DNA from: Caldimonas thermodepolymerans | GTDB lineage: Bacteria > Pseudomonadota > Gammaproteobacteria > Burkholderiales > Burkholderiaceae_C | Assembly (NCBI RefSeq): GCF_015476235.1 | Contig: NZ_CP064338.1 | Span: 3,782,001 to 3,846,000, forward strand | Direction: 5' to 3' | Length of the DNA: 64,000 nt | Part shown: positions 1-21,440 of the stretch, piece by piece | Position numbering within the stretch: the stretch's first letter is position 1 | How the letters are laid out: the number at the start of each line of letters is the position of its first letter | The notes under the pieces: generated by a model | Database searches by the model: none | What the model was told of the DNA's origin: nothing | The model's input: only the letters and a program-made list of their open reading frames with translations | Program-made: the position numbers and the translations under genes

Positions 1-1
1 G

Positions 2-967
2 AATGGCGGCTACATGATGCTGCGCGGGGTAGGCCCGGGCACGCTCTATGACGATTATGTCCGTGTGGCGGCTGTCGATCTCTCCCGCGTCTATGGCAGC
101 AGCAACCCGGCCCTCGCGCCCCATGTCACCATCGCCGGTGTCGGCGCCGCCAATGTCTCGGTCGGCTGGGGCAGCGCGGTAGGCCCGCAGGCCAATGCCG
201 GCGCCTACGCCTTCACCGATCCCGGTGTGCTTGACATCTCGACCGGTTCGCCGGGTGGGGTCTATGTGGACTATGGCTCGGGCACGCTGACGGTGACGCC
301 GCGCGCGATCACGGTGACGGCCTCCAACCTTTCTCGTCTCTATGGCGAGGCCAACCCGGCGCTGACCTTCGGCCCGATCGGCGGCGACGGGCTTGCCTCG
401 TTCCACGCCGATCTCGCCGCCGCCGGCTTCGGGCTTGTGACCGCTGCCGGGATGCAGTCGGATGTCGGCAGCTACGCCATCGACCTGACGGGAGCCAACG
501 GCAATTACGACGTGACCTTCACCCCCGGCACGCTGACGGTAACGCCGCGCGCCATCACAGTGACGGCGGATGATCTGCGCAAGCTTCTGGGGCAGGCCGA
601 TCCGGCGCTGACCTGGTCGATCACCGGTGGCAGCCTTGCCAGCTTCGATACGGAAGCTGGCGTGTTCGGGGGTGATCTGATGCGCGATCCCGGCGAAGGG
701 GTTGGCACATACAGCATCCGGCAGGGAACGCTTGTCGCCAACTCCAATTACGACGTGACCTTCGTAGACGGCACGCTGACCATCGCGCCGGTCGCGGTGA
801 GTGTGGCGAGCCTGTTCGAGCGCGCCCTGCCGTTGTCTTTGCAGGCCGACCCGACGGAAGGCGGCGCCCTTGTCCTGTGCGATACCGGCGTGCTGCCGGA
901 AGCGGAATGCGCAGCCTATCCCCATCCGGCCAATCGCGGCCTCGCCCATGTCGGGTTCGCTCAATAA
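2..967 (+). CDS. C-terminal end of a two-partner-secretion exoprotein (TpsA) with MBG-type repeats; start lies outside the window
   Basis: The reading frame is open from base 2, so this is the 3' end of a larger gene. It encodes about 321 residues made of three imperfect repeats of roughly 80 residues. Each repeat carries a core of the form (D/N)L-R-YG--NPAL (first at about residue 25, next near 110 and 195) and they are joined by the recurring linker GTLTVTPRAITVT. This pattern matches the MBG (mostly beta-strand) repeats found near the C-terminus of large filamentous haemagglutinin-like secreted proteins. The last 50 residues include two cysteines and no obvious anchor. It lies just upstream of a TpsB transporter gene, which would be its dedicated outer-membrane exporter. 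Because that transporter gene is disrupted by an insertion sequence, secretion of this protein is probably lost. The haemagglutinin N-terminal secretion domain cannot be checked here. Confidence 0.75.
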   Translation, partial: NGGYMMLRGVGPGTLYDDYVRVAAVDLSRVYGSSNPALAPHVTIAGVGAANVSVGWGSAVGPQANAGAYAFTDPGVLDISTGSPGGVYVDYGSGTLTVTPRAITVTASNLSRLYGEANPALTFGPIGGDGLASFHADLAAAGFGLVTAAGMQSDVGSYAIDLTGANGNYDVTFTPGTLTVTPRAITVTADDLRKLLGQADPALTWSITGGSLASFDTEAGVFGGDLMRDPGEGVGTYSIRQGTLVANSNYDVTFVDGTLTIAPVAVSVASLFERALPLSLQADPTEGGALVLCDTGVLPEAECAAYPHPANRGLAHVGFAQ

Positions 968-978
968 GGGGGCCTGCC

Positions 979-1013
979 ATGAAGCATCACCGCAGGATTG
1001 CCGCCGGCCTCTG
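979..1013 (+). pseudogene. 5' fragment of the TpsB gene (first half of the signal peptide) cut off by an ISL3 element
   Basis: An ATG at 979 opens a frame reading M-K-H-H-R-R-I-A-A-G-L before the insertion sequence begins at 1014. If the element (1014-2472) and one copy of the 8-bp target duplication are removed, the frame joins exactly to base 2481. It then continues W-A-S-V-S-L-A-A-L-I-G-L-A-G-I-A-H-A-Q, which completes a textbook signal peptide ahead of the TpsB mature sequence. The start is 12 bases after the stop of the exoprotein gene, as expected for a TpsA-TpsB operon. Confidence 0.88.
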
Positions 1014-2472
1014 GGCTCCATGTCGTTTCGTGTGGAAAGCAACACTGTCACTGGGGCATCGCCGGCGCGAATGGGCTGGCCGGCAGGTGCTTGAGCTTGG
1101 ACATGCGTAGATAGGCGATGGCGATGAAGTTCTGGCTCGTCCTGAAGCCGCGTGCGGCGCGCTTGGCCTGCTGCAGCAGCCCGTTCATCGCCTCGACGAA
1201 GGCGTTGCTGCGGTGATCGACCATGCCGCGCACCACCGCGTCGAACCGCTCCTTGAGCGTGGCGGCCAGCTTCTTGAACGGCTCGAGCCGACAGCGCCGC
1301 GCCCAGCTCAGCCAGGCCCTGAGGTCGGATGCGGCCTGTTCGATGCTGTTGTGCGCTGTGGCCCGCGCGTACACCTCGCGCAGCGCCATCTTCAGCCGCC
1401 ACGCCCGCGCGCTCTTGAGCGTCGAGCGCTGCAGCCAGTGCATGGCATCGAGCTGGCGGGCGCTCCAGGTGCTGGGGTTGCGCCGCATGCCCCACAGCAG
1501 CTGCCTGAGCGTCTTGCGGCCGCCAGCGCCCAGCGCGGCTCGCACCGCCTGCGCGTCGGTGGCCATCTCCGCGCGGCGCACCTGGTCCATCGCATCGATG
1601 GCCATCGAGACGACGTGAAAGCGGTCGTAGCTGATCTGCGCCTGGGGCAGCGCCAGCGCCACGCCCTTGGCGTAGGCTGCGCTCATGTCCATGCACACGT
1701 GCCGCACCTGGGCGGGATCGCCGCCATGGGCCTTCAGATCCTCGGCGAACTCCACCACCGTGCGGTGCTCGCGCCCCTCGGTGGCGAACAGCAGCCGCTT
1801 GCGATCCAGGTCGTGCACGACGGTGATGTAGTGCTGCCCGCGCCGCAGGCTGGTCTCGTCGATGCCCACCGTGCGCACGCCGGCGAAGTCTTCCAGCGCA
1901 CGCGCCTGCGCGACGTAGAACTCGATGCGCCGCCACAGCCGCTTGTCCTTGCAGCGCAGCAACTCGGCGGCCTGGCGCACCGGCAGGTCCAGGCACAAGG
2001 TCAGCGCCAGCGCTTCGAACGCCGCGGTGAAGCCCGAGCCCGGACGCGCCCAGGGCACGGCCACCTGCGTGGTCTTGCCGCAGGCACCGCAGGCCACGCG
2101 CGGCACGTCGCAGTGCAGCCAGGCCTCGAACTGGAAGAAGTCCAGGTGCCGCCAGGATCGGCGCAGCCGGTCGTGCACCGGTTGCGTGGCCGCATGCCGG
2201 GCAGGCGAGCCTGCTGGTGTGGCAGCCGATCTCGAAGTCGATACGCCGCTTAGCGGTGTCGAGCCTGACGTCATCGACGACCTACGGCGGCTGCAAGCCC
2301 AGCGCGCTGGTGAACAGAGCTTCCACGGCAATGCCCATGGACTCATCCTCCTGATCAAACCCGCCCGGTGGACATGTGCACAGGCCGGCCAGCGGCCTGC
2401 ACACATGCCCACCGGGCTCGACGACCAGGAGTCATTGTGACTGTTGGGTTCCACACGAAATGACGAAGAGCC
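1014..2472 (-). mobile_element. ISL3-family insertion sequence, complete ends, 8-bp target duplication
   Basis: The left end starts GGCTCCATGTCGTTTCGTGT and the right end, read inward on the minus strand, starts GGCTCTTCGTCATTTCGTGT, so the terminal inverted repeats match over about 25 bases with few mismatches. The element is flanked by perfect 8-bp direct repeats GGCCTCTG at 1006-1013 and 2473-2480. An 8-bp duplication and this type of end are typical of ISL3 elements. The element is 1459 bp and carries one transposase gene reading leftwards. A 76-bp copy of the left end (1014-1089) is also found at 16776-16851. Confidence 0.93.
1048..2338 (-). pseudogene. ISL3-family transposase with a broken N-terminal zinc-binding region
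   Basis: The long intact part encodes the DDE transposase body of ISL3 elements, with the motif VGIDETS, a second acidic site at CMDMSAAY, and the C-terminal FVEAMNGLLQ containing the catalytic glutamate. The natural start is the ATG at 2338, preceded by AGGAGGATGAGTCC. From there the frame reads MGIAVEALFTSALGLQPP and then hits an in-frame TAG at 2282-2284, where the family normally has tryptophan. It continues after the stop as VVDDVRLD and on to the cysteine pair C-P-A-C, then must shift frame near 2185-2200 to reach the intact downstream frame. A longer open frame starting at 2454 bypasses both lesions but has a meaningless first 80-90 residues. The copy therefore looks inactive unless the lesions are suppressed. 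Confidence 0.8.
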
Positions 2473-2480
2473 GGCCTCTG

Positions 2481-4194
2481 GGCCTCTGTCTCACTGGCCG
2501 CGCTGATTGGTCTGGCTGGCATAGCCCACGCCCAGTCCACGGCGATCGAGCGCAACCTGCCCCCTGCGTCGGTCACCTCTGGCGGCGAGATCAGGGTGGA
2601 CGAGACGATTGCCGGCTCGACTGACGAGACCCCGCTTGGCGTCGATGTCGCCGGCATCGCGCTGATCGGCCCCGATGCGCAGGTACCGGCAAGACCGCAG
2701 CCCGGCGTGTCGCTGGAGGGCATTGCGGAGAGCTATCATGATGCGGTCCGCGCTGCCTTGGCGCCGCTGATCGGCCAGCCGCTCAGCCCGGCGCTGATCG
2801 CCCGCGCGCAAGGCGTTGTCGCCGGCGTCTGGCGGCAGGCAGGCTACCCCTTCATGTCGGTTACCGTGCCGCCGCAGGAGGTCACGTCCGGCGTGCTCAC
2901 CCTGCGCGTGGTCGAGTTCGTCGCCGGCAATGTCTCGTCCGACCATGCCAGCCTGCCGCTGCATGTCCGGCAGCAACCGGGCGAAGCGATCTCGGCCGCG
3001 CAACTCTCCGAAGACCTTGCCTGGCTCAACCGCAATCCCTTCCGGCAGGTGGGCGCGGTCTTCGCCCCCGGCGATCAGCGCGGCGCCAGCGATATCGAGC
3101 TGACCGTCACGACGGACAAGCCGTTCGCGGTCTATGCCGGCTGGGACAATACCGGCAGCCCCGCCACCGGCCGCGACCGCTTCTATACCGGCGGCGGTGT
3201 CTGGATCCCCGCGCTCAACGACATGACGCTGTCCTGGCGCTATACGCGCTCGGACGAGTTGTGGGACGGCAATGTGTTCGGGCTCGATCCGGCAAAGCGC
3301 GGCTACCTCAGCCTTGCGGGCCGCATCGACCTGCCGACCCTGCCGAGACAAGCTCTGTCCATCGCACCGAACTTCGTCACCACCAACGAGTTCATTGCCG
3401 GCACGCCCTTCAGCTTCGAGAACACCACCTTCGAGCTGCCCATTCTCTACCGGACGGCCGTCTCCAACATGGTGCCCGGAACCTATTGGGGCGACCTTTA
3501 CTTCGGCATCGAGCCCAAATGGCTCCGGCGCACGACGCGCTTTGCCGGGATCGATGTCGCCGAGGGCGAAGCCGGGCTGGTCAATCTCGTCCTCGGCTGG
3601 TCGCACCTGCTCACCGACCCTCATGGCCGCACCTCCATCGACTTGCGGCTCAAGGCCAATCCCGGCGGCGTGCTCGGCACCAACACGGCCGCCGACTGGG
3701 CCGCCTTTACCGGTGGACGGGTCAGCGACCACACTTATGTCCATGCCGGCTTCGACATCGCCCGCTGGACGCGGCTCCCGAACGACTTCGCCTGGTCGAG
3801 CACCCTGACCGGCCAGATCGCCGGACAGGCACTGCCGGACACCGAGCGGCTGAGCCTTGGCGGGCATTATGCCGTGCGGGGGGTCGAGCACAATGACGTA
3901 TCGGCCGATGCGGGCGTCGTCTGGCGCAACGAACTGCGCCTGCCCGCCATGCGGCCGCTGGCAGGCGCCGGTCTTGCCGACACGCTCTCGCCCTTCGCCT
4001 TCCTCGATCTCGGCTGGGGCAAGGACAACGCATCGGGAACGAGCAATAGCCTTGCTGGTGCCGGGCTCGGCTTCGACTATGCCATCGGCACAAACTTCAA
4101 TGCCGGCGCCACCGCCGCAGTCGCGCTCACCGATGCGGGAACGACGCGCGCGGGCGACTGGTCCGTCACCACCAATATCCGCTTCACCTATTAA
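2481..4194 (+). pseudogene. TpsB outer-membrane transporter (ShlB/FhaC/HecB family), separated from its start by the insertion sequence
   Basis: This is the main body of a two-partner-secretion translocator. It would be 582 residues if joined to the 35 bases at 979-1013. The part after 2596 encodes about 532 residues: a polypeptide-transport-associated (POTRA) domain around residues 50-150 with the pattern G-V-L-T-L-R-V-V-E, then a 16-strand-type barrel. The barrel includes the conserved Y-A-G-W-D-N-T-G-S strand and a C-terminal T-T-N-I-R-F-T-Y ending in an aromatic residue, as in Omp85-superfamily barrels. It would sit in the outer membrane and export the upstream exoprotein. Without the first part of the signal peptide, any protein started internally (first ATG 2596) would not be exported, so the gene is most likely non-functional. 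Confidence 0.88.
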
Positions 4195-4202
4195 ACCCAG
4201 CC

Positions 4203-4772
4203 ATGGCAAGGCCGCCCAAAGACCCACACATGCCCCGCTCCCTCGCCCGCATCAAAGCCGTGCTGATCCTGCTCGCAGCTGCCACCGCGATGCTGCTGCC
4301 GTCCCTCCCCGCCGCCGCGCAGGACAACACGCCCACCCCGCAGGCCACTACAGCCACCTATCGCGACTGGACGGTGCGCTGCGATCATCTGCCGCAGACC
4401 CCGCCGCGCAGGGTCTGCGAGGTCGTACAGGCCGTTCGCGCCAATGACGGTCAGGCATTTCTCGCCCAGGTCGTCATCGGGAAGCCCGCGCCCGACCAGC
4501 CGACAAAGCTCATCGTCCAGCTTCCGGCTGGCGTCTGGCTTCCCGCCAACGTCACCCTGACCGCACCTTCGGGCGAAAGCGCCACTGCCACCTTCACCCG
4601 CTGCATGCAGCTCTGCGTCGCCGACGCCGATATCGCTCAACCTCTCGTCGACGCTCTCAAGGCCGCAACCGAACCGGCAAGGCTCACCTTCCAGGACGGA
4701 AACCGCAGACCCATCGAACTCCCAATATCCCTCAACGGGTTTACGGCAGCAATGAACGCAGCAGCAGAGTAG
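4203..4772 (+). CDS. Invasion-associated locus B (IalB)-family periplasmic protein
   Basis: The protein is 189 residues from ATG 4203, or 180 from ATG 4230, which gives a cleaner signal peptide (basic start, long Leu/Ala core, cleavage after AAAQ). The mature part has the IalB pattern: a short W-T-V-R-C opening, a C-E-V-V-Q motif, L-P-A-G-V-W-L-P, and paired cysteines in R-C-M-Q-L-C-V-A. IalB proteins are periplasmic or surface proteins of unclear biochemical role, named from Bartonella, and are commonest in Alphaproteobacteria. It follows the TpsB gene by 8 bases, so it probably belongs to the same transcription unit. Its presence with the secretion pair supports import of the whole locus. 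No clear ribosome-binding site separates the two candidate starts. Confidence 0.8.
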   Translation: MARPPKDPHMPRSLARIKAVLILLAAATAMLLPSLPAAAQDNTPTPQATTATYRDWTVRCDHLPQTPPRRVCEVVQAVRANDGQAFLAQVVIGKPAPDQPTKLIVQLPAGVWLPANVTLTAPSGESATATFTRCMQLCVADADIAQPLVDALKAATEPARLTFQDGNRRPIELPISLNGFTAAMNAAAE

Positions 4773-4978: not shown

Positions 4979-5806
4979 TCAGAGCTTCTCGGTCTCGCCC
5001 GAGCGCGGCTGCCACTTCATCAGGCGCCGCTCGACCCAGCCGACCACCTCGTCGAGCACCAGCGCGAAGATGGTCAGCACCAGGATGCCGGCCATCACCG
5101 TGTTGATGTCGAAGCTGCCTTCGGCCTGCAGGATCAGGTAGCCCACGCCGCTGGACGAGCCCAGGTACTCGCCCACCACCGCGCCGACGAAGGCCAGGCC
5201 CACCGAGGTGTGCAGCGAGCTGAACACCCAGCTCGTCGCGCTGGGCAGGTAGACGTGGCGCAGCAGCTGCTTCTGCGTCGCGCCCAGCATGCGCGCGTTG
5301 GCCAGCACCACGGGGCTGACTTCCTTGACGCCCTGGTAGACGTTGAAGAACACGATGAAGAACACCAGGGTGATGCCCAGTGCCACCTTGCTGGCCACGC
5401 CCAGGCCGAACCACACCGCGAAGATCGGCGCGAGGATCACGCGCGGCATCGAGTTCAGCGCCTTGATGTAGGGATCGAGGATGGCCGCGGCCATCGGGCT
5501 CAAGGCCAGCCACAGGCCCATCGCCAGGCCCATGACGGTGCCGATGCCGAAGGCCAGCAGCGTCTCCAGCAGCGTGATCCACAGGTGGCCGTAGATGTCG
5601 GCCGCAACGAAGAACCAGTTCCAGATGCGTTCGAACACCTTCAGCGGCTCGCCGAAGAAGAACGCGGCCTGGTCGTCGTTGTCGAACAGGAACGGGGGAA
5701 TCAGGCCCGGCTTGGTCATCACGTGCCAGAACACGAAGACCGCGACGAGCAGGCCCACCTGCCAGACGCGCAGGTTACGGGCATTGGGTTGGATATGACG
5801 CCACAT
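4979..5806 (-). CDS. ABC transporter permease, NitT/TauT (SsuC/TauC) type
   Basis: The protein has 275 residues with about six membrane helices and the BPD_transp_1 fold. The EAA-like cytoplasmic loop is around residues 170-190 (A-R-M-L-G-A-T...L-L-R-H-V-Y-L-P), where the ATPase docks. Relatives import sulfonates, taurine, nitrate, thiamine precursors or similar small organic ions; the substrate cannot be told from the permease. It is the last gene of a leftward group with its ATPase (gap 24 bases) and a binding protein further upstream, so all three form one importer. ATG 5806 is the only convincing start. Confidence 0.9.
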   Translation of the reverse strand: MWRHIQPNARNLRVWQVGLLVAVFVFWHVMTKPGLIPPFLFDNDDQAAFFFGEPLKVFERIWNWFFVAADIYGHLWITLLETLLAFGIGTVMGLAMGLWLALSPMAAAILDPYIKALNSMPRVILAPIFAVWFGLGVASKVALGITLVFFIVFFNVYQGVKEVSPVVLANARMLGATQKQLLRHVYLPSATSWVFSSLHTSVGLAFVGAVVGEYLGSSSGVGYLILQAEGSFDINTVMAGILVLTIFALVLDEVVGWVERRLMKWQPRSGETEKL

Positions 5807-14328: not shown

Positions 14329-16014
14329 GTGGCCCGGACGACCCCGCCTGAGTCCCCGACCTTCGACTACGTGATCGTCGGCGCCGGCACCGCCGGCTGC
14401 CTGCTCGCCAACCGCCTCAGCCGCGACCCGGCCGTGCGCGTGCTGCTGCTGGAGGCCGGCCGGCGCGACGACTACCACTGGATCCACATCCCGGTCGGCT
14501 ACCTCTACTGCATCGGCAACCCGCGCACCGACTGGCTCTACCACACCGAGGCCGACCCTGGCCTCAACGGCCGCACCCTGCGCTACCCGCGCGGCAAGGT
14601 GCTGGGCGGCTGCTCCAGCATCAACGGGATGATCTACATGCGCGGCCAGCGGCGCGACTACGACCACTGGGCCGCGCTGACCGGCGACGACGCCTGGCGC
14701 TGGGACCAGTGCCTGCCCTACTTCAAGCGGCACGAGAACCACTGGCGCCTCGACCCCGAGCGCCGCGACCAGGCCGGCGAGGCCTTCGCCGCGCTGCATG
14801 GCCACGGCGGCGAATGGCGCGTCGAGAAGCAGCGCCTGCACTGGGACATCCTCGACGCCTTCGCCCAGGCCGCCCAGCAGGCCGGCATCCCTGCCACCGA
14901 CGACTTCAACGGCGGCAACAACGAGGGCGTCGGCTACTTCGAGGTCAACCAGCGCGCCGGCTGGCGCTGGAACGCCGCCAAGGCCTTCCTGCGCCCGGTG
15001 TGCATGACCCGGCCCAACTTCCGGCTCTGGACCGACGCGCACGTCACCCGCCTGCTGTTCGAGCGCGACGGCGACGGCATGCTGCGCACCACCGGCTGCG
15101 AGGTGCGCACGCCCTCCGGCGTGCAGCAGGTCCGCGCGGCGCGCGAGGTGATCCTGGCCGCCGGCGCGATCGGCTCGCCACAGATCCTGCAGCTGTCGGG
15201 CATCGGACCGGCGGCGCTGCTGCACGAGCACGGCATCGAGGTCGTGCACGATTTGCCCGGCGTCGGCGAGAACCTGCAGGACCACCTGCAGATCCGCGCG
15301 GTGTATTCGGTGGAAGGCGTGAAGACGCTCAACACGCTGACGCGCCGCTGGTGGGGCAAGGCCATGATCGGGCTGGAATACGCGCTGCGCCGCACCGGGC
15401 CGATGAGCATGGCCCCCTCGCAGCTGGGCGCCTTCACCCGCTCCTCACCCGCGCACGAGTGGCCCAACGTCGAGTACCACGTGCAGCCGCTGTCGCTGGA
15501 GGCCTTCGGCGAGCCGCTGCACCCGTTCAACGCCTTCACGGCGAGCGTCTGCAACCTCAACCCGACCAGCCGCGGCCACGTGCACATCCGCTCCCCGCGC
15601 CCCGAGGACGCCCCGCGCATCCTGCCCAACTACCTCTCCACGCCCGAGGACCGCAAGGTGGCCGCCGACTCGCTGCGGCTGACGCGCCGCATCGTCGCCC
15701 AGCCCGCGCTGCAGAAATACCGCCCGCAGGAAGTCAAGCCCGGCGTGCAGTACCAGACCGACGAGGAACTGGCCCGGCTGGCCGGCGACATCGCGACGAC
15801 CATCTTCCACCCCGTGGGTACCTGCAAGATGGGCCGCCCCGACGACCCCACCGCCGTCGTCGACCCGCGCCTGCGCGTGCGCGGCGTGCGCGGCCTGCGC
15901 GTGATCGACGCCAGCGTGATGCCGACCATCACCAGCGGGAACACCAATTCGCCGACGCTGATGATTGCGGAGAGGGGGGCGGAGTGGATACTAAACAATA
16001 ATCCACTAGAGTGA
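14329..16014 (+). CDS. GMC-family flavoprotein oxidoreductase (choline dehydrogenase-like)
   Basis: The protein has 561 residues. The start is GTG 14329, with CAGGAG seven bases before it. It has the FAD dinucleotide motif GAGTAG at 18-23, then L-L-E-A-G, and the GMC signature V-L-G-G-C-S-S-I-N-G-M near 91. The C-terminal catalytic motif has a histidine in F-H-P-V-G-T-C-K-M-G and an asparagine in G-N-T-N-S-P. Enzymes of this type oxidise alcohols, including choline, aliphatic and polyethylene-glycol alcohols; the substrate is not clear and there is no betaine aldehyde dehydrogenase nearby. It is the last chromosomal-type gene before low-GC mobile DNA starts at about 16015. Confidence 0.9.
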   Translation: MARTTPPESPTFDYVIVGAGTAGCLLANRLSRDPAVRVLLLEAGRRDDYHWIHIPVGYLYCIGNPRTDWLYHTEADPGLNGRTLRYPRGKVLGGCSSINGMIYMRGQRRDYDHWAALTGDDAWRWDQCLPYFKRHENHWRLDPERRDQAGEAFAALHGHGGEWRVEKQRLHWDILDAFAQAAQQAGIPATDDFNGGNNEGVGYFEVNQRAGWRWNAAKAFLRPVCMTRPNFRLWTDAHVTRLLFERDGDGMLRTTGCEVRTPSGVQQVRAAREVILAAGAIGSPQILQLSGIGPAALLHEHGIEVVHDLPGVGENLQDHLQIRAVYSVEGVKTLNTLTRRWWGKAMIGLEYALRRTGPMSMAPSQLGAFTRSSPAHEWPNVEYHVQPLSLEAFGEPLHPFNAFTASVCNLNPTSRGHVHIRSPRPEDAPRILPNYLSTPEDRKVAADSLRLTRRIVAQPALQKYRPQEVKPGVQYQTDEELARLAGDIATTIFHPVGTCKMGRPDDPTAVVDPRLRVRGVRGLRVIDASVMPTITSGNTNSPTLMIAERGAEWILNNNPLE

Positions 16015-16586
16015 AAGAGTCGCAACAACGACCCGCCACCCAGCATACGATTCCATAGATCGCCATGAGAAATTTTACAGCGCTCTTCCTGACCACACTG
16101 GCTACCAACGGCTTCTTTTGCGAGAAGCGATAAGTGCTCCGCCCTTGCAAAACTCGCAGCCACAATATATGAGAACAGACAGTCCATCAACGAATATCAG
16201 ATGCTTCGCGGAATGGAGCACAAGTCCGCAGCTGTAGACTTCGCATTTATTAGGCCATTCTCTGGAATCGCTTATGGCGTAAACAAATCGCCCCCTCCAG
16301 ATTTCAAGCAGCGACCGAGAAATTCTGCAGACGCCTTGAAGCCGCCCTACCCTCTTAACAAGCTCATACCGCAGCAATCGGAATCCATCATGTGATTCGC
16401 CGGTTAGTCAGGCGAACATGATCAATGTGTTTCGTCAAACCGGGGACACTGCCACCTCACTACGGCGACATTTCGAAAAGACCGACAGCAAGAACGATTA
16501 TGGCGACCGTCTCGCAGCCGACTTCTTGCTCTTGTTATCAGAACTGCGGTTTTCGGAGGCCTTCAACAACTTACCAGACTCCTACT
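16015..16586. other. Low-GC foreign stretch with no convincing gene
   Basis: Base composition drops sharply after the GMC stop and codon bias is lost. The best open frame is 16418-16636 (+), 72 residues starting MINVFRQTGDTATSLRRHFE. It runs through the IS5-type end at 16587, so only about its first 56 residues precede the element and it looks like a truncated gene. Other short frames on both strands have no recognisable features. I read this as decayed imported DNA. Confidence 0.5.
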
Positions 16587-16775
16587 TCGTCGGCCCTGCA
16601 AAACGCCCTGAAGCCGCATGGACACTGAGTTGGTGAGGTGATGTTGCGGGGTTGGAACTCCCGAAGATGAATCGGCTCGATGCGAATTTCTGGGAGTTTG
16701 GAGACGGATTTCGATGAGCACGCCGGACTTTTTCCGCGCCCGACTGGACCAGATGATCGACCTGCGCCACCCGCT
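16587..16775. mobile_element. Truncated left end of the IS5-family element
   Basis: These 189 bases are essentially identical to the left end of the complete element at 19856 onward. They include the terminal GCCCTGCAAAACGCC, the untranslated leader and the first 23 or so codons of the transposase (MSTPDFFRARLDQ...). Identity stops at the point where an ISL3 end begins (16776), so an ISL3 element inserted here and the rest of this IS5 copy was lost. It is in the same orientation as the complete copy 3.3 kb away. Confidence 0.9.
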
Positions 16776-16851
16776 GGCTCCATGTCGTTTCGTGTGGAAA
16801 GCAACACTGTCACTGGGGCATCGCCGGCGCGAATGGGCTGGCCGGCAGGTG
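16776..16851. mobile_element. Truncated left end of the ISL3-family element
   Basis: These 76 bases match the left end of the element at 1014-1089 base for base, including the inverted repeat and the last codons of the transposase gene (P-A-S-P-F-A-P-A-M-P-Q). The match stops abruptly at 16851. The segment directly after it (16852-16870, GGCTCTATGCCGTTTTGTG) resembles another ISL3-type terminal repeat with three mismatches, so two related ends may abut here. Confidence 0.9.
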
Positions 16852-16873
16852 GGCTCTATGCCGTTTTGTGAGG

Positions 16874-16931
16874 CCTAACGCCCTGAATTCAGCCGACGCC
16901 GTAGGCGGTCGGCTGCGATAAATAGTTAGAA
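16874..16931 (-). other. attC site of the lipoprotein gene cassette
   Basis: The segment is bounded by the complementary cores GCCTAAC (left) and GTTAGAA (right), with an imperfect palindrome between (AGCCGAC...GTCGGCT). It lies immediately after the stop of the lipoprotein gene read leftwards. It differs in sequence from the two aadA-type sites further right. This is the outer end of the cassette array as preserved. Confidence 0.85.
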
Positions 16932-16934
16932 TCC

Positions 16935-17366
16935 TTATTTTGCTTCTTCTTGTTTTACATCGGCCGTTGCTGGTAATTCGTTCTTGGTTTCTATTGTTTT
17001 TGCCGGAGCAATAATTCCGGGACATTTTTTAGATATCGCTGCCTGCTGAATTGCATCATATTCTCCTTTAAGTCGGGCGTATTCCGCCTCTTGTTGCTTT
17101 GTTCCGCCAAGTGCAAAAAGTGCTGGCCAAAATAAAATCATGCCAACGCCAGCAATTGCTTTATCGTTAGAGGCAGCTTCGTCTAAGCGTGCACCAAGTT
17201 GGGTTACGCGTGCTTGAACTCTTTGTGACTCACTAATCAACTGTTCGCAATCGTATGATTGGTACTGTAAAGGAGAAACAGAAACTGCTGCAATATCTTT
17301 TGATGCTGTAGAGCAGCCAGCAAGAACCATGGTCATGGCGAGTGTCGAGGCGATAAATTTTTTCAT
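16935..17366 (-). CDS. Cassette-encoded small lipoprotein, function unknown
   Basis: The protein has 143 residues with a lipoprotein signal (MKKFIASTLAMTMVLAGCST, lipobox L-A-G-C). The mature part contains S-Y-D-C-E-Q-L, a helical stretch with R-V-T-Q-L-G-A-R-L-D-E-A, a short hydrophobic segment G-M-I-L-F-W-P-A-L-F-A-L-G-G, and a late cysteine (K-K-C-P-G). Similar small lipoproteins are frequent passengers of gene cassettes. Its codon use is far more AT-rich than the chromosome. The gene lies between attC sites 16874-16931 and 17390-17448, so it is one complete cassette read leftwards. Confidence 0.85.
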   Translation of the reverse strand: MKKFIASTLAMTMVLAGCSTASKDIAAVSVSPLQYQSYDCEQLISESQRVQARVTQLGARLDEAASNDKAIAGVGMILFWPALFALGGTKQQEAEYARLKGEYDAIQQAAISKKCPGIIAPAKTIETKNELPATADVKQEEAK

Positions 17367-17389
17367 GATAAGTTACAGGGTTGAAAAAA

Positions 17390-17448
17390 CCTAACGCTTG
17401 AATTAAGCCGCGCCGCGAAGCGGCGTCGGCTTGAATGAATTGTTAGAC
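17390..17448 (-). other. attC site (aadA-type 59-base element) of the AbiTii cassette
   Basis: The segment runs from CCTAACG to GTTAGAC with the palindromic core AAGCCGCGCCGCGAAGCGGC in between. It is nearly identical to the attC at 18388-18447. It directly follows the stop of the AbiTii-domain gene (17450) in the cassette reading direction. Sharing one attC type suggests that this cassette and aadA come from related integrons. Confidence 0.93.
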
Positions 17449-17449
17449 G

Positions 17450-18370
17450 TCATTTGAGGCCGTAGTACTTCAGGAGCGCTTCTTTGATAACGTCTGTAGC
17501 AACGGCCAATCCGACCTTCCAAGTGCCAGACCCTGCTTTCTTTAGGTTCTTAAGAAGCCACGCTTTAACTTTGGGTCCCATCGGCTCGGCAGGGCTTTCT
17601 GGTTTTTCCGTTGATGCCAGTTCCGCAAGTTCTTGCGCGTCAGCTGCGGAAATTCCTGCTTGCGTAAGGTACTGCGAAAGGGACTCTTTGTTGCCCGTGT
17701 CAATTGAAATCGTGACGGTCGCGCCGCTCTGTGCAGACACGGCGGTGTAGTTGCCATAGATGATCTGTTGCGCGATCTGCGTAGTGACGCCGGATGCATT
17801 TCCAGAAAGAACAGTGGATTCGCCTAGCGAAACCTCTGCAGCTCCAGGCACCGATTTCTCGATCTCGAGAGTCAGTTCTAGAACTCGATTGAGAACGGCA
17901 TGCCGAATTGCAGCCAGTGAGCCACGCGAGATAGTTCCAGTTACCGCATTGCACGCATAGTCCGGATAGATCTTTCCCTGCAGCAGGAGAATCAGATTGG
18001 CTGCCTCTATGGTGAATGTGCCAGATTTCTTTGAGCTAGCTAGCAGTTCGTCAACAGCGGCAATGCTCTCCCGCATTTCATAGTGCGTCCAACTTTTCCC
18101 TGCAAATTTCTCAATTAGGTAGGGAGAAATCGGAGCATTGTTAATGCCGGAGCCGAACGGCCCAGAGAACGTGCCCTTGTAGCTAACGCCCAGGACTCTA
18201 TAGTCAGGAACTTCTACTCCGCTCGGGTAGCCTTCCGATTCGTGTTTTACCCAATCTGCCAGCGGCTGGCTACCGAGGCGAGCAGCCAACATTCTGAGCT
18301 TTAGCAGAATTGGAGCGATATCAGATTGGTCGTGCAGTACTGCGCTCTGTATATCTAGCAGCAAGCCCAT
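17450..18370 (-). CDS. AbiTii-domain protein, likely abortive-infection phage defence, in an integron cassette
   Basis: The protein has 306 residues. The start at ATG 18370 follows GGGGACA. A TTG at 18382 would add four residues. The first 90 residues (MGLLLDIQSAV..., L-R-M-L-A-A-R-L-G, W-V-K-H-E-S-E-G-Y, V-P-D-Y-R-V-L-G-V) match the AbiTii domain seen at the start of abortive-infection proteins. The middle (about 95-200) is helical with L-L-L-Q-G-K-I-Y. The C-terminal 90 residues carry a Ser/Asp-rich strand region (T-V-T-I-S-I-D-T-G-N-K-E) and end in K-Y-Y-G-L-K. No nuclease or toxin motif is visible. It is a complete cassette behind aadA, and I infer a defence role from the domain. Confidence 0.8.
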   Translation of the reverse strand: MGLLLDIQSAVLHDQSDIAPILLKLRMLAARLGSQPLADWVKHESEGYPSGVEVPDYRVLGVSYKGTFSGPFGSGINNAPISPYLIEKFAGKSWTHYEMRESIAAVDELLASSKKSGTFTIEAANLILLLQGKIYPDYACNAVTGTISRGSLAAIRHAVLNRVLELTLEIEKSVPGAAEVSLGESTVLSGNASGVTTQIAQQIIYGNYTAVSAQSGATVTISIDTGNKESLSQYLTQAGISAADAQELAELASTEKPESPAEPMGPKVKAWLLKNLKKAGSGTWKVGLAVATDVIKEALLKYYGLK

Positions 18371-18387
18371 GACTGTCCCCAAATGAC

Positions 18388-18447
18388 GTCTAACGCCTGA
18401 ATTAAGCCGCGCCGCGAAGCGGCGTCGGCTTGAATGAATTGTTAGAC
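18388..18447 (-). other. attC site (59-base element) of the aadA cassette
   Basis: Bounded by GTCTAAC and GTTAGAC with the well-known aadA-type core palindrome. The aadA reading frame runs into it and terminates at 18402, so the site itself encodes the last residues of the protein. Confidence 0.95.
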
Positions 18448-19247
18448 ATCACTGGCATGGCACTAAGCAATTTAGTGGCTTCATGTTTCACGAAGTGAAC
18501 GAACGCCGCCAACTGATCCGCGCGTGAGGCCAAGCAATCTTCTCCTTGTCCAAGATAAGCCTGCCGGGCTTCAAGCAGTACGGGCTTATGTTGATCTGGC
18601 AGACGCTCCATTGCCCAGTTGGCAACGATATCCTTCGGTGCGATCTTGCCGGTTGCTGCGCTGTACCAAATGCGAGACAAGGTAAGCACTACATTCCGCT
18701 CATCGCCTTCCCAATCCGGCTGCGAATTCCATAGTTTCAGAGTGTCGCTCAATGCCTTGAATAGATCGCCTTCCGGAACTGGGTTAAAGAAATCCTCTGC
18801 GGCCGAACCTGCCAATGCAAGGCTATGCTGCCTTACTTTAGTTAGCAGAATAGCCAGATCAACATCGGTTGTGGCGGGCTCGAAGATGCCCGCAAGAATG
18901 TCCTTACGCTGCCACTCCCCGAATTGCAGTTCCCGTCTGGCCGGATAACGCCAAGGGACAACATCACCATGCACGACGATGGTAACTTCCAAGGCGCGGA
19001 GAGCCTCACTTTGGCCAGGGGAGGCAGAAATTTCCAAGAGATCTACGACCAGGGCTTGTCGGACAGTCTCATCGAGCCGTGCAGCCACAGTAACCAGCAA
19101 ATCAATATCACTGTATGGCTTCAGGCCACCGTCCAGTGCAGAGCCGTACAAATGCACGGCCAGCAACGTTGATTCCAGATGACGCTCGATGGCGTTGAGA
19201 GCCAGTGATAGCTGTACCGAAATCTCGGCGGGTACTGCGTTACTCAT
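18402..19247 (-). CDS. aadA: Aminoglycoside 3''-nucleotidyltransferase (streptomycin/spectinomycin resistance), integron cassette
   Basis: The 281-residue protein begins MSNAVPAEISVQLSLALNAI. It has the nucleotidyltransferase motif H-L-Y-G-S-A-L-D-G-G-L-K-P-Y-S-D-I-D-L-L with its metal-binding aspartates, then W-R-Y-P-A and L-T-L-S-R-I-W-Y. It adenylylates the 3'' hydroxyl of streptomycin and the 9 hydroxyl of spectinomycin. It belongs to the aadA6/aadA10/aadA11-like branch by its N-terminus, though I cannot fix the allele. The last residues (S-F-K-P-T-P-L-R-G-A-A) are translated from the attC site. The gene starts a few bases after the attI-like core, so it is the first cassette of the array and well placed for expression from an integron promoter. 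Confidence 0.95.
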   Translation of the reverse strand: MSNAVPAEISVQLSLALNAIERHLESTLLAVHLYGSALDGGLKPYSDIDLLVTVAARLDETVRQALVVDLLEISASPGQSEALRALEVTIVVHGDVVPWRYPARRELQFGEWQRKDILAGIFEPATTDVDLAILLTKVRQHSLALAGSAAEDFFNPVPEGDLFKALSDTLKLWNSQPDWEGDERNVVLTLSRIWYSAATGKIAPKDIVANWAMERLPDQHKPVLLEARQAYLGQGEDCLASRADQLAAFVHFVKHEATKLLSAMPVMSNNSFKPTPLRGAA

Positions 19248-19250
19248 GAT

Positions 19251-19312
19251 GTCTAACGTGTTATAGGGAGCAAAACTGCTGCATAACACCGACGGCTGTC
19301 TCCCTAACACCG
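19251..19312 (-). other. attI-like recombination site in front of aadA
   Basis: Reading leftwards, the segment contains GTTATGCAGCAG and ends in the core GTTAGAC directly before the aadA start, which parallels the arrangement of attI1 (GTTACGCAGCAG and a terminal GTTAGRY core). I cannot assign an integron class. No integrase reading frame is present on either side; the DNA to the right (19313-19465) is short and leads straight into a plasmid replication-gene relic. Confidence 0.65.
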
Positions 19313-19465
19313 GCGGCTCGATCGGGCGTAAAGCCGCGCCCAGCCTGCGTTTCCAGGCATTGACTGGATGTTTGTACAGTACTAAATTTCATGCAAATTG
19401 GCGCAACGTTCGTACCACGCACTTTGCCTGTGCGCGCGGGCGTGGGCAATCCCCCCCGAAAGGGG

Positions 19466-19855
19466 CTACCGCAGAGCCGGTGCAGCGTCTCGATCTTGAT
19501 CGGGAACGGCTTGGCGTGGCTGGCGTAGAAGCCATGCAGCCACTGCGCGAGCTGGTGGCCGTCCAGCGCATGGCGCACGGCCCATTCCACCTGCGTGAAC
19601 TGGTCGGCGGCGAACAGCGGGCGCAGCTTCTCGTCCAGCTCGATGACCCACTCCTGCGTTTCCTCGTCCTTCGCCGCGAAGCGAATCAGGCCGCCGATGT
19701 AGGTGAGCGGCCCTGCTTGACGGTCACGGCATTGGCTACAAGCCGCTCGATGCGCGTTTGCAGGGTCGCCCGGTTCTTGCCGGTGTCGGTCTTGCCCATG
19801 AGCTTCAGTAGGGCGTAGGACGTGACGCGGCACCGACTGCCCAGCTCCTGAGTCA
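19466..19855 (-). pseudogene. Relic of a plasmid TrfA-type replication initiator, truncated at both ends and frameshifted
   Basis: In two leftward frames the translation reads L-M-G-K-T-D-T-G-K-N-R-A-T-L-Q-T-R-I-E-R-L-V, then Y-I-G-G-L-I-R-F-A-A-K-D-E-E-T, and then Q-W-L-H-G-F-Y-A-S-H...T-L-H-R-L-C-G. The last motif is characteristic of TrfA-like initiators of IncP-type plasmids. The frames switch near 19708-19714, where one C appears to be missing from a GGCCCG run. The N-terminal side is cut by the IS5-family element at 19856 and the C-terminal side ends at about 19466 against integron sequence. It shows that the surrounding segment came from a plasmid. Confidence 0.75.
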
Positions 19856-21440
19856 GCCCTGCAAAACGCCCTGAAGCCGCATGGACACTGAGTTGGTGAG
19901 GTGATGTTGCGGGGTTGGAACTCCCGAAGATGAATCGGCTCGATGCGAATTTCTGGGAGTTTGGAGACGGATTTCGATGAGCACGCCGGACTTTTTCCGC
20001 GCCCGACTGGACCAGATGATCGACCTGCGCCACCCGCTGGCGGTGCTGGCCACGCGCATGCCGTGGCAGCAGATCGAAGCGAGCGTGGCGCCGCTGCTGG
20101 CGCGCAAGGACCGGCGCGGGCGCAGCATCGAAGGTGCAGACCTGTTCGGCCCCACGCTGCAGGTGGTCGGCGCAGGCGTGAGCGCGGCAGGCCGCCCGCG
20201 CCTGGCGATCCGCTTGATGGTGTCGCTGCTGTACCTGAAGCATGCCTATGGCCTGAGCGACGAGGCCGTGGTCGAGCGCTGGGCCGAGAACGTGGTGTGG
20301 CAGTTCTTCAGCGGGCAGGAGTACTACGAGCCGCGCCTGCCGTGCGATGCCACGCAGATCGGGCGCTTCAGGCGGGTGCTGGGCGAGGCCGGCGTGGAGG
20401 AGTTGCTGGCCAAGACGATCGAGGCGGCCGTGCAGATGCAGGCGGTGCGCAAGAGCGAACTGCAGCGGGTGATCGTGGACACCACGGTGCAGGAGAAGGC
20501 GGTGGCCTATCCCACCGACAGCCGGCTGCTGGAAGTGGCGCGGGCCAAGGCGGTGCAACTGGCGCAGCGCGCCGGGCTGCGGCTGAAGCAGACCTTCGAG
20601 CGCGAGGGCCGCAGCCTGCGCCGGCGTGCCGGCGGCTATGCGCACGCCAAGCAGTTCAAGCGGCTGCGCCGGGTGCTCAAGCGCCAGCGCACCGTGCTCG
20701 GGCGCGTGCTGCGCGACGTGCAACGCCGCCTGCTGGCAGCGCCGCAAGACGTGCGTGATCGCCTGCAGCCATGGCTGGATCGCGCCGAGCGCATCCGCTC
20801 GCAGCGCCCCAAGGACAAGCACAAGCTGTACGCGCTGCATGCGCCGGAGGTCGAGTGCATCGGCAAGGGCAAGGCCCGCCAGCCCTACGAGTTCGGCGTG
20901 AAGGTCAGCGTGGCCGTCACGGCCAAACAGGGCTTGATGGTCGGTGCGCGCAGCCTGCCGGGCAACCCCTACGACGGCCACACGCTGGCCGAGCAACTGG
21001 AGCAGACCACCGTCTTGCTGCAGGACCTGGGCGTCAAGCCGCACACGGCCATCGTCGACCTGGGCTACCGGGGGGCGGATGCCGACATTGGCGCGGTGAC
21101 ATTGATCCATCGCGGCAAGAGCCGCTCGCTCACGCGCAGCCAGCGGCGCTGGCTGAAGCGGCGTCAGGCGGTCGAGCCGGCCATCGGGCATGCCAAGCAC
21201 GATCACGGCATGAAGCGCTGCTGGCTCAAGGGCGCTGAGGGTGACGCGCTGCATGCGGTGTTGTGCGCAGCCGGCTTCAACATCCGCTGGCTGCTGCGTG
21301 CCATCGCCCGGCGGGGCATTGCTCCAGCCTTTTTGCGCTCGCTTTGGCTGCTGTCAGCGCTCGCAGCGTCCGCGAGTCGACTCGCTACTCTTGCACGTCC
21401 GGCGCTTCTCGTCGGCGCCGCGAGATGAATTTTGCAGGGC
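19856..21440 (+). mobile_element. Complete IS5-family insertion sequence
   Basis: The element is 1585 bp with short terminal inverted repeats: GCCCTGCAAAA at the left (19856-19866) and TTTTGCAGGGC at the right (21430-21440). It encodes one transposase. The immediate flanks (GTCA on the left, CGAC on the right) do not form a direct repeat, so one side has probably been rearranged since insertion. A second, truncated copy of the left end lies at 16587-16775. Confidence 0.88.
19977..21428 (+). CDS. IS5-family transposase
   Basis: The protein has 483 residues. It has an N-terminal DUF772-type domain (about 45-130, with L-F-G-P-T-L-Q-V and I-R-L-M-V-S-L-L-Y-L-K-H). The DDE catalytic domain has its first aspartate in V-I-V-D-T-T-V (near 164), its second in A-I-V-D-L-G-Y-R-G (near 360) and its glutamate in V-E-P-A-I-G-H-A-K-H-D. 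The frame is intact and ends 12 bases before the right end of the element. It catalyses cut-and-paste movement of the element. The C-terminal 40 residues are hydrophobic and of low complexity. Confidence 0.93.
   Translation: MSTPDFFRARLDQMIDLRHPLAVLATRMPWQQIEASVAPLLARKDRRGRSIEGADLFGPTLQVVGAGVSAAGRPRLAIRLMVSLLYLKHAYGLSDEAVVERWAENVVWQFFSGQEYYEPRLPCDATQIGRFRRVLGEAGVEELLAKTIEAAVQMQAVRKSELQRVIVDTTVQEKAVAYPTDSRLLEVARAKAVQLAQRAGLRLKQTFEREGRSLRRRAGGYAHAKQFKRLRRVLKRQRTVLGRVLRDVQRRLLAAPQDVRDRLQPWLDRAERIRSQRPKDKHKLYALHAPEVECIGKGKARQPYEFGVKVSVAVTAKQGLMVGARSLPGNPYDGHTLAEQLEQTTVLLQDLGVKPHTAIVDLGYRGADADIGAVTLIHRGKSRSLTRSQRRWLKRRQAVEPAIGHAKHDHGMKRCWLKGAEGDALHAVLCAAGFNIRWLLRAIARRGIAPAFLRSLWLLSALAASASRLATLARPALLVGAAR

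What the first reader, a model, noticed from the sequence alone, without database searches (positions are those of the whole stretch)
979..4194. IS element precisely splits the signal peptide of a two-partner-secretion transporter
Removing 1014-2472 and one copy of the 8-bp repeat restores a continuous 582-residue TpsB with an ideal signal peptide. Gene disruption is therefore readable to the base, and the secretion system is likely off in this isolate. It shows recent, possibly phase-like, inactivation.
Basis: seen in the sequence. Interest (0 to 1): 0.8.

Follow-up and report, generated by a model that had tools for sequence, protein, structure and literature searches.

The report
Jumping DNA splits a secretion gene
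A 1,459-base jumping DNA element whose own transposase gene is broken sits inside the predicted signal-peptide codons of an outer-membrane export gene that was likely gained from another class of bacteria, so this strain likely cannot send out the partner surface protein; it is an ordinary kind of bacterial gene loss, with the twist that the element was likely moved by intact sister copies in the same genome.

Summary
An ISL3-family insertion sequence (1014-2472) with imperfect 40-nt terminal repeats and an exact 8-bp target duplication lies 35 nt into a tpsB gene (POTRA_2 + ShlB), directly after an open tpsA (TPS domain, GLUG stretches, MBG). Export of this TpsA is likely off.

One detail is wrong: the uninterrupted site should hold GGCCTCTG twice in tandem, not once, because one of the window's three copies is a native neighbour.

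"Phase-like" is not supported. The element's own transposase gene has an early stop and a 5-bp deletion, and an identical dead copy lies 1.98 Mb away. Three other copies in the genome keep an intact 431-aa transposase and near-identical ends, so movement in trans is likely. Excision in trans is not excluded; none was seen.

The tpsAB locus is likely foreign: it sits beside a decayed serine recombinase, relaxase and TraD remnants, its named relatives are Alphaproteobacteria, and its DNA matched 1 of 399 family genomes, the window's own.

Overall: an ordinary but cleanly readable gene loss.

The parts
1..967 (+). 3' end of tpsA (whole open frame is L040 13835-18967, 1710 codons from a TTG, first ATG at codon 6)
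   Evidence: Pfam TPS, Glug (10 stretches), MBG_2
979..1013 (+). 5' piece of tpsB (35 nt; reads on into the element and stops after 43 codons, stop at 1108)
   Evidence: same start in relatives P0118 and P0002
1006..1013 (.). left copy of the 8-bp target duplication
1014..2472 (-). ISL3-family insertion sequence, 1459 bp, transposase on the minus strand
1014..1053 (.). left terminal inverted repeat
   Evidence: I1, 75% complementary
2433..2472 (.). right terminal inverted repeat
   Evidence: I1
1048..2454 (-). broken transposase gene: the start used by the intact copies (2338) runs 18 codons to a stop at 2284-2282, and a 5-bp deletion near 2190-2199 shifts the frame; the HTH and DDE domains remain in one open frame
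2473..2480 (.). right copy of the 8-bp target duplication
2481..2488 (.). further GGCCTCTG, taken as native to the gene
   Evidence: relative P0118 reads GLWAS here
2481..4194 (+). 3' piece of tpsB, open; first ATG/GTG/TTG in frame is GTG 2596
4203..4772 (+). IalB-family gene directly after tpsB
   Evidence: PF06776, 94.4 bits, cut-off 22.1

Best explanation
An ISL3-family insertion sequence whose own transposase gene is broken lies inside the predicted signal-peptide codons of a likely horizontally acquired tpsB gene, which likely stops export of the TpsA partner that is still encoded. Shown: the insertion, the 8-bp duplication, the two open tpsB pieces, an uninterrupted natural relative, the broken transposase frame, and intact sister copies in the same genome. 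Inferred: (1) the copy was moved by transposase from the intact copies, since an identical dead copy lies elsewhere and the ends are near-identical; (2) with no usual start codon between the element and position 2596, TpsB loses its signal peptide and does not reach the outer membrane; (3) TpsA is therefore not secreted by this route; (4) the event is recent, and it is not a switch that the element can run by itself.
For: Exact 8-bp duplication and inverted repeats. ISL3 transposase above curated cut-offs. Five full copies in the own genome. The window copy and L002 are identical over 1459 bp and share the lesions; L003, L004 and L005 have a 431-aa open transposase. Left 40 nt of the window copy and L003 differ at one base, right 40 nt not at all. 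Two left-end remnants in the genome carry the dead subtype's variant. Uninterrupted relative P0118, 59 of 64 and 250 of 251 residues; P0002, 582 aa. In-frame stop at 2461 inside the element and no ATG, GTG or TTG before 2596. Foreign origin.
Against: L002, the identical dead copy, has no target duplication, so recombination between copies has happened and gene conversion is an alternative to movement in trans. A 468-codon minus-strand frame keeps the HTH and DDE domains, so a shortened or altered transposase with some activity cannot be excluded. A second TpsB-like frame exists in the genome (1024460-1025032, 26% over residues 36-219) and might in principle serve TpsA. The tool shows no source for P0118, and only its protein was seen. 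No expression or secretion data.
Confidence: 0.85

Rival explanations
1. Reversible, phase-like switch: the element is excised precisely from time to time, driven in trans by sister transposase, and secretion returns in part of the population.
For: Three copies with an open transposase frame. Circular forms are reported for ISL3 members, and transposition through a circle for ISPst9 (PMC3812183, passages). An uninterrupted allele exists (P0118).
Against: The element cannot drive itself as far as its transposase frame shows. P0118 differs at 6 residues from the window's pieces, which points to another strain rather than an excised form of this one. No mixed state could be seen: only one assembled sequence is held.
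Confidence: 0.07
2. The insertion was made by an intact copy, and the lesions were copied in later by gene conversion with L002 (or the other way round), so the dead copy was never mobilised in trans.
For: L001 and L002 are identical over 1459 bp, and L002 has no target duplication, which shows recombination at that site.
Against: The window copy has a clean duplication, and two remnants carry the dead subtype's left end, so that subtype seems to have spread to several places.
Confidence: 0.2
3. TpsB is still made from a downstream start (GTG 2596, or CTG 2494 as in the database call P0001) and keeps some function.
For: The 3' piece is open to its end; a database gene call begins at 2494 (P0001).
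Against: GTG 2596 lies beyond the predicted signal peptide; the CTG start would lack the charged residues, and nothing like a strong ribosome-binding site is seen in the 20 nt before it (by eye).
Confidence: 0.05
4. Assembly artefact: the IS was placed in tpsB by a misjoin between repeat copies.
For: The copy is identical to another one 1.98 Mb away.
Against: An exact 8-bp duplication in otherwise unique sequence, and a single-contig genome listed as 100% complete and 0.01% contaminated; a misjoin would not make a target duplication.
Confidence: 0.03

Closest known systems
ISL3-family insertion sequences (ISPst9, ISPpu12, IS1411; names from PMC3812183 passages and reference list)
   Same: DDE_Tnp_ISL3, HTH and zinc-ribbon domains in the intact copies; inverted repeats; 8-bp duplications
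   Different: The window copy has a broken transposase gene; no circle or excision was seen here
Two-partner secretion transporters (TpsB: CdiB 6wim, FhaC 4qky)
   Same: POTRA_2 and ShlB domains above cut-off; sequence matches to CdiB (1.1e-8, query residues 55-194) and FhaC (2.3e-5, residues 396-496); tpsA next door
   Different: Split by an IS in the predicted signal peptide; distant from the solved members
MBG-domain TpsA / ShlB-family TpsB pair of Nitratireductor sp. OM-1 plasmid pOM-1 (NZ_CP029209.1)
   Same: Same order; TpsB 46.8% identical over 99% of the query
   Different: Uninterrupted; no IalB gene beside it; other neighbours
bcpAIOB locus of Burkholderia thailandensis E264 inside an IS2-like composite transposon (PMC6350997, passages)
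   Same: A two-partner-secretion locus shaped by insertion sequences in the same order of bacteria
   Different: There the IS elements carry the locus about; here one IS breaks it

Membership tests
ISL3-family insertion sequence | ISL3-type DDE transposase | tested here: met
   PF01610 227.4 bits (cut-off 23); NF033550 304.8 bits (cut-off 180); intact copies 318.1 and 307.4
ISL3-family insertion sequence | 8-bp target duplication (family value recalled) | tested here: met
   Window copy and L004: 2 of 5 full copies in the own genome; a copy in G160 also, TATAGCAC, read from flanks printed. L002, L003 and L005: none
ISL3-family insertion sequence | terminal inverted repeats | tested here: met
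   40 nt, 75% complementary
ISL3-family insertion sequence | own working transposase (autonomous copy) | tested here: not met
   early stop and 5-bp deletion in this copy; open in L003, L004, L005. This bears on autonomy, not on family membership
TpsB of two-partner secretion | POTRA and ShlB/FhaC barrel domains | tested here: met
   PF08479 33 bits (cut-off 24), PF03865 101.8 bits (cut-off 22.7)
TpsB of two-partner secretion | partner TpsA with TPS domain next door | tested here: met
   PF05860 94.1 bits (cut-off 33.5) in L040 13835-18967
TpsB of two-partner secretion | continuous N-terminal signal peptide | tested here: not met
   gene split at 1013/1014; continuous in P0118 and P0002
TpsB of two-partner secretion | secretes its TpsA | not testable with these tools
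   needs an experiment
Phase-variable locus | both states found in one population | not testable with these tools
   one assembled sequence, no reads

The most novel reading that the evidence does not exclude
A secretion cassette brought from Alphaproteobacteria on a mobilizable element was silenced in its new betaproteobacterial host by a transposase-dead ISL3 copy that parasitises intact sisters, and it comes back on only when those sisters are active: an off-switch run in trans.
Probability: 0.1. Interest if true: 0.5.

Novelty: new member of a known kind. Interest (0 to 1): 0.25.

Why it matters
It is a clean, base-level case of a gained secretion cassette being lost again: the vehicle has decayed, the cargo stayed open and close to its relatives, and an IS then split it. 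Identical dead IS copies next to intact ones make movement in trans within one genome testable. It does not change what is known about insertion sequences or two-partner secretion.

Tried and rejected
Phase variation run by the element itself: rejected, its transposase frame is broken. Composite transposon around tpsAB: the only other match to the IS that one search lists in the window is a 76-bp left-end remnant at 16776-16851. An IS-supplied start for TpsB: an in-frame stop lies at 2461 inside the IS, and no ATG, GTG or TTG follows before 2596.

Uninterrupted gene in sister species: protein search in 60 genomes (own included) gave 34 with a match at E <= 0.001, outside the own locus at most 37% identical, mostly over parts of the protein. 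DNA of the 3' piece: 1 of 399 family genomes, the own one, at E <= 1e-20. Protein in 398 genomes of the phylum: 4 at E <= 1e-40, own included, best other 49%. Scan of genome contigs: 11 loci, 23-31% identity; near records of the window's own genome may be left out there. Plasmids: 48 records, all below 60% identity. So the uninterrupted allele was seen only as proteins.

The IS elsewhere: 2 plasmid records with 10% and 7% of its length; in 299 family genomes 134 had some match at E <= 0.001, mostly short; outside the own genome only G160 had full-length copies at 97% (two), and G005 of the same genus had fragments at 97-100% (two candidates scored per genome).

Island ends: only a shared 10-bp word, not taken as an attachment site. 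Empty site of the island: of five relatives fetched, only G002 aligned on both outer sides; there other DNA lies between, 399 nt of it also in G008, so it is not a clean empty site. Papers: searches were seen as listings; passages of PMC3812183 and PMC6350997 were read; the primary ISL3 papers are not held. I make no claim that anything is absent from print.

Full report
What is there. The window begins in the 3' end of a long gene that, read in the neighbouring DNA (L040), is an open tpsA frame of 1710 codons with a TPS secretion domain, ten GLUG stretches and MBG_2. Eleven bases after its stop a tpsB gene begins at ATG 979. After 35 nt it is cut by a 1459-bp element, 1014-2472. The rest of tpsB, 2481-4194, is open and carries POTRA_2 and ShlB domains above Pfam's cut-offs. 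An IalB-family gene follows at 4203.

The element. Its ends are imperfect inverted repeats (40 nt, 75% complementary). It lies between two exact copies of GGCCTCTG (1006-1013, 2473-2480). Its transposase belongs to the ISL3 family. In the same single-contig genome of 3.86 Mb, one search lists eight matches: five full copies, two left-end remnants (76 and 43 bp) and one marginal match (33 bp, 88%). Two of the five full copies have an 8-bp duplication: the window copy and L004; L002, L003 and L005 have none. A copy in a genome of another genus of the family (G160, L048) has one too, TATAGCAC, read from the flanks printed.

The empty site. After the right duplicate comes a further GGCCTCTG (2481-2488), taken as native. 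The natural relative P0118 runs uninterrupted through both flanks. The window's two pieces, compared with it separately, match 59 of 64 residues (the five mismatches lie in its first ten residues) and 250 of 251, and it reads GLWAS there. P0002 is 582 aa and 93% identical. The tool shows no source for P0118. Its 6 differences argue for another strain rather than an excised form of this one.

What the split does. The 5' piece reads into the element and stops after 43 codons. The 3' piece has an in-frame stop upstream at 2461 and no ATG, GTG or TTG before 2596, which lies past the predicted signal peptide by alignment with relatives. A database gene call starts at CTG 2494 (P0001), without the charged N-terminus. 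Loss of TpsB from the outer membrane, and failure to secrete TpsA, are inferred from established knowledge of two-partner secretion; nothing was measured. A second TpsB-like frame lies at 1024460-1025032, 26% identical over residues 36-219.

Is it a switch? The window copy and L002 are identical over 1459 bp and share an early stop and a 5-bp deletion in the transposase gene. L003 and L004 are identical to each other and open (431 aa), as is L005. The window copy differs from L003 by 23 substitutions and 5 gap columns. The left 40 nt of the two types differ at one base, the right 40 nt not at all. The likeliest reading is that a dead copy was moved by transposase from intact copies. Against it: L002 has no target duplication, so recombination between copies has occurred and gene conversion could have made the two dead copies alike; and a 468-codon frame in the dead copy keeps the HTH and DDE domains, with a weaker zinc-ribbon match (32.3 against 46.0 bits). 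For it: both remnants carry the dead subtype's left-end variant. Either way it does not look like a self-driven switch. Circles are reported for ISL3 members (PMC3812183, passages), so excision in trans stays open.

Where the locus came from. In a Nitratireductor plasmid the pair has the same order, with an MBG-domain TpsA. The host's 16S matches Burkholderiales replicons at 92-95% in the 10 rows listed of 527, so the host is likely a betaproteobacterium. The 3' piece of tpsB matched 1 of 399 family genomes, the own one. Left of tpsA lie a serine recombinase in two frames, a HicB-like and a PIN-domain frame, about 120 residues of a TraA/MobA-type relaxase, and TraD-family frames: likely a decayed mobilizable element. 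The outer neighbours are a pterin-4a-carbinolamine dehydratase gene (L040 9482-9838) and an ABC permease (window 4979-5806). In G002 both are present 2.6 kb apart without the island, with other DNA between; in the other four relatives fetched only the permease side aligned, apart from one distant 65% match in G008.

Verdict. It is an ordinary kind of event. What the tools added: the third 8-mer, the dead transposase with intact sisters, an uninterrupted relative, and the likely foreign origin of the locus.

Noticed in passing
L040 9880-13285 (left of the window; window base 1 = L040 18001): Remains of a mobilizable element beside tpsA: serine recombinase in two frames, HicB-like and PIN-domain frames, truncated TraA/MobA-type relaxase, TraD-family frames.
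   Followed up: partly
window 16776-16851 (L006): 76-bp left-end remnant of the same IS, identical to the dead subtype, followed by a second end-like stretch; it lies in a patch of lower GC (16001-20000: 0.51-0.56).
   Followed up: partly
genome 2046460-2049393 (L003, L005): Two IS copies, 35 substitutions apart, head to tail with 5 bp between them and no target duplication on the outside. Circle- or end-targeted insertion is possible; unexplained.
   Followed up: no
genome 1799645-1812716 (L041): Between two IS copies (L002, L004) lie a GmrSD-type restriction gene with a RAMA domain and a WYL-domain gene, a possible defence patch; an IS3-type integrase frame lies beside L004.
   Followed up: no
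genome 1024460-1025032: A second, distant TpsB-like gene (627-codon open frame, 26% identity over residues 36-219).
   Followed up: no
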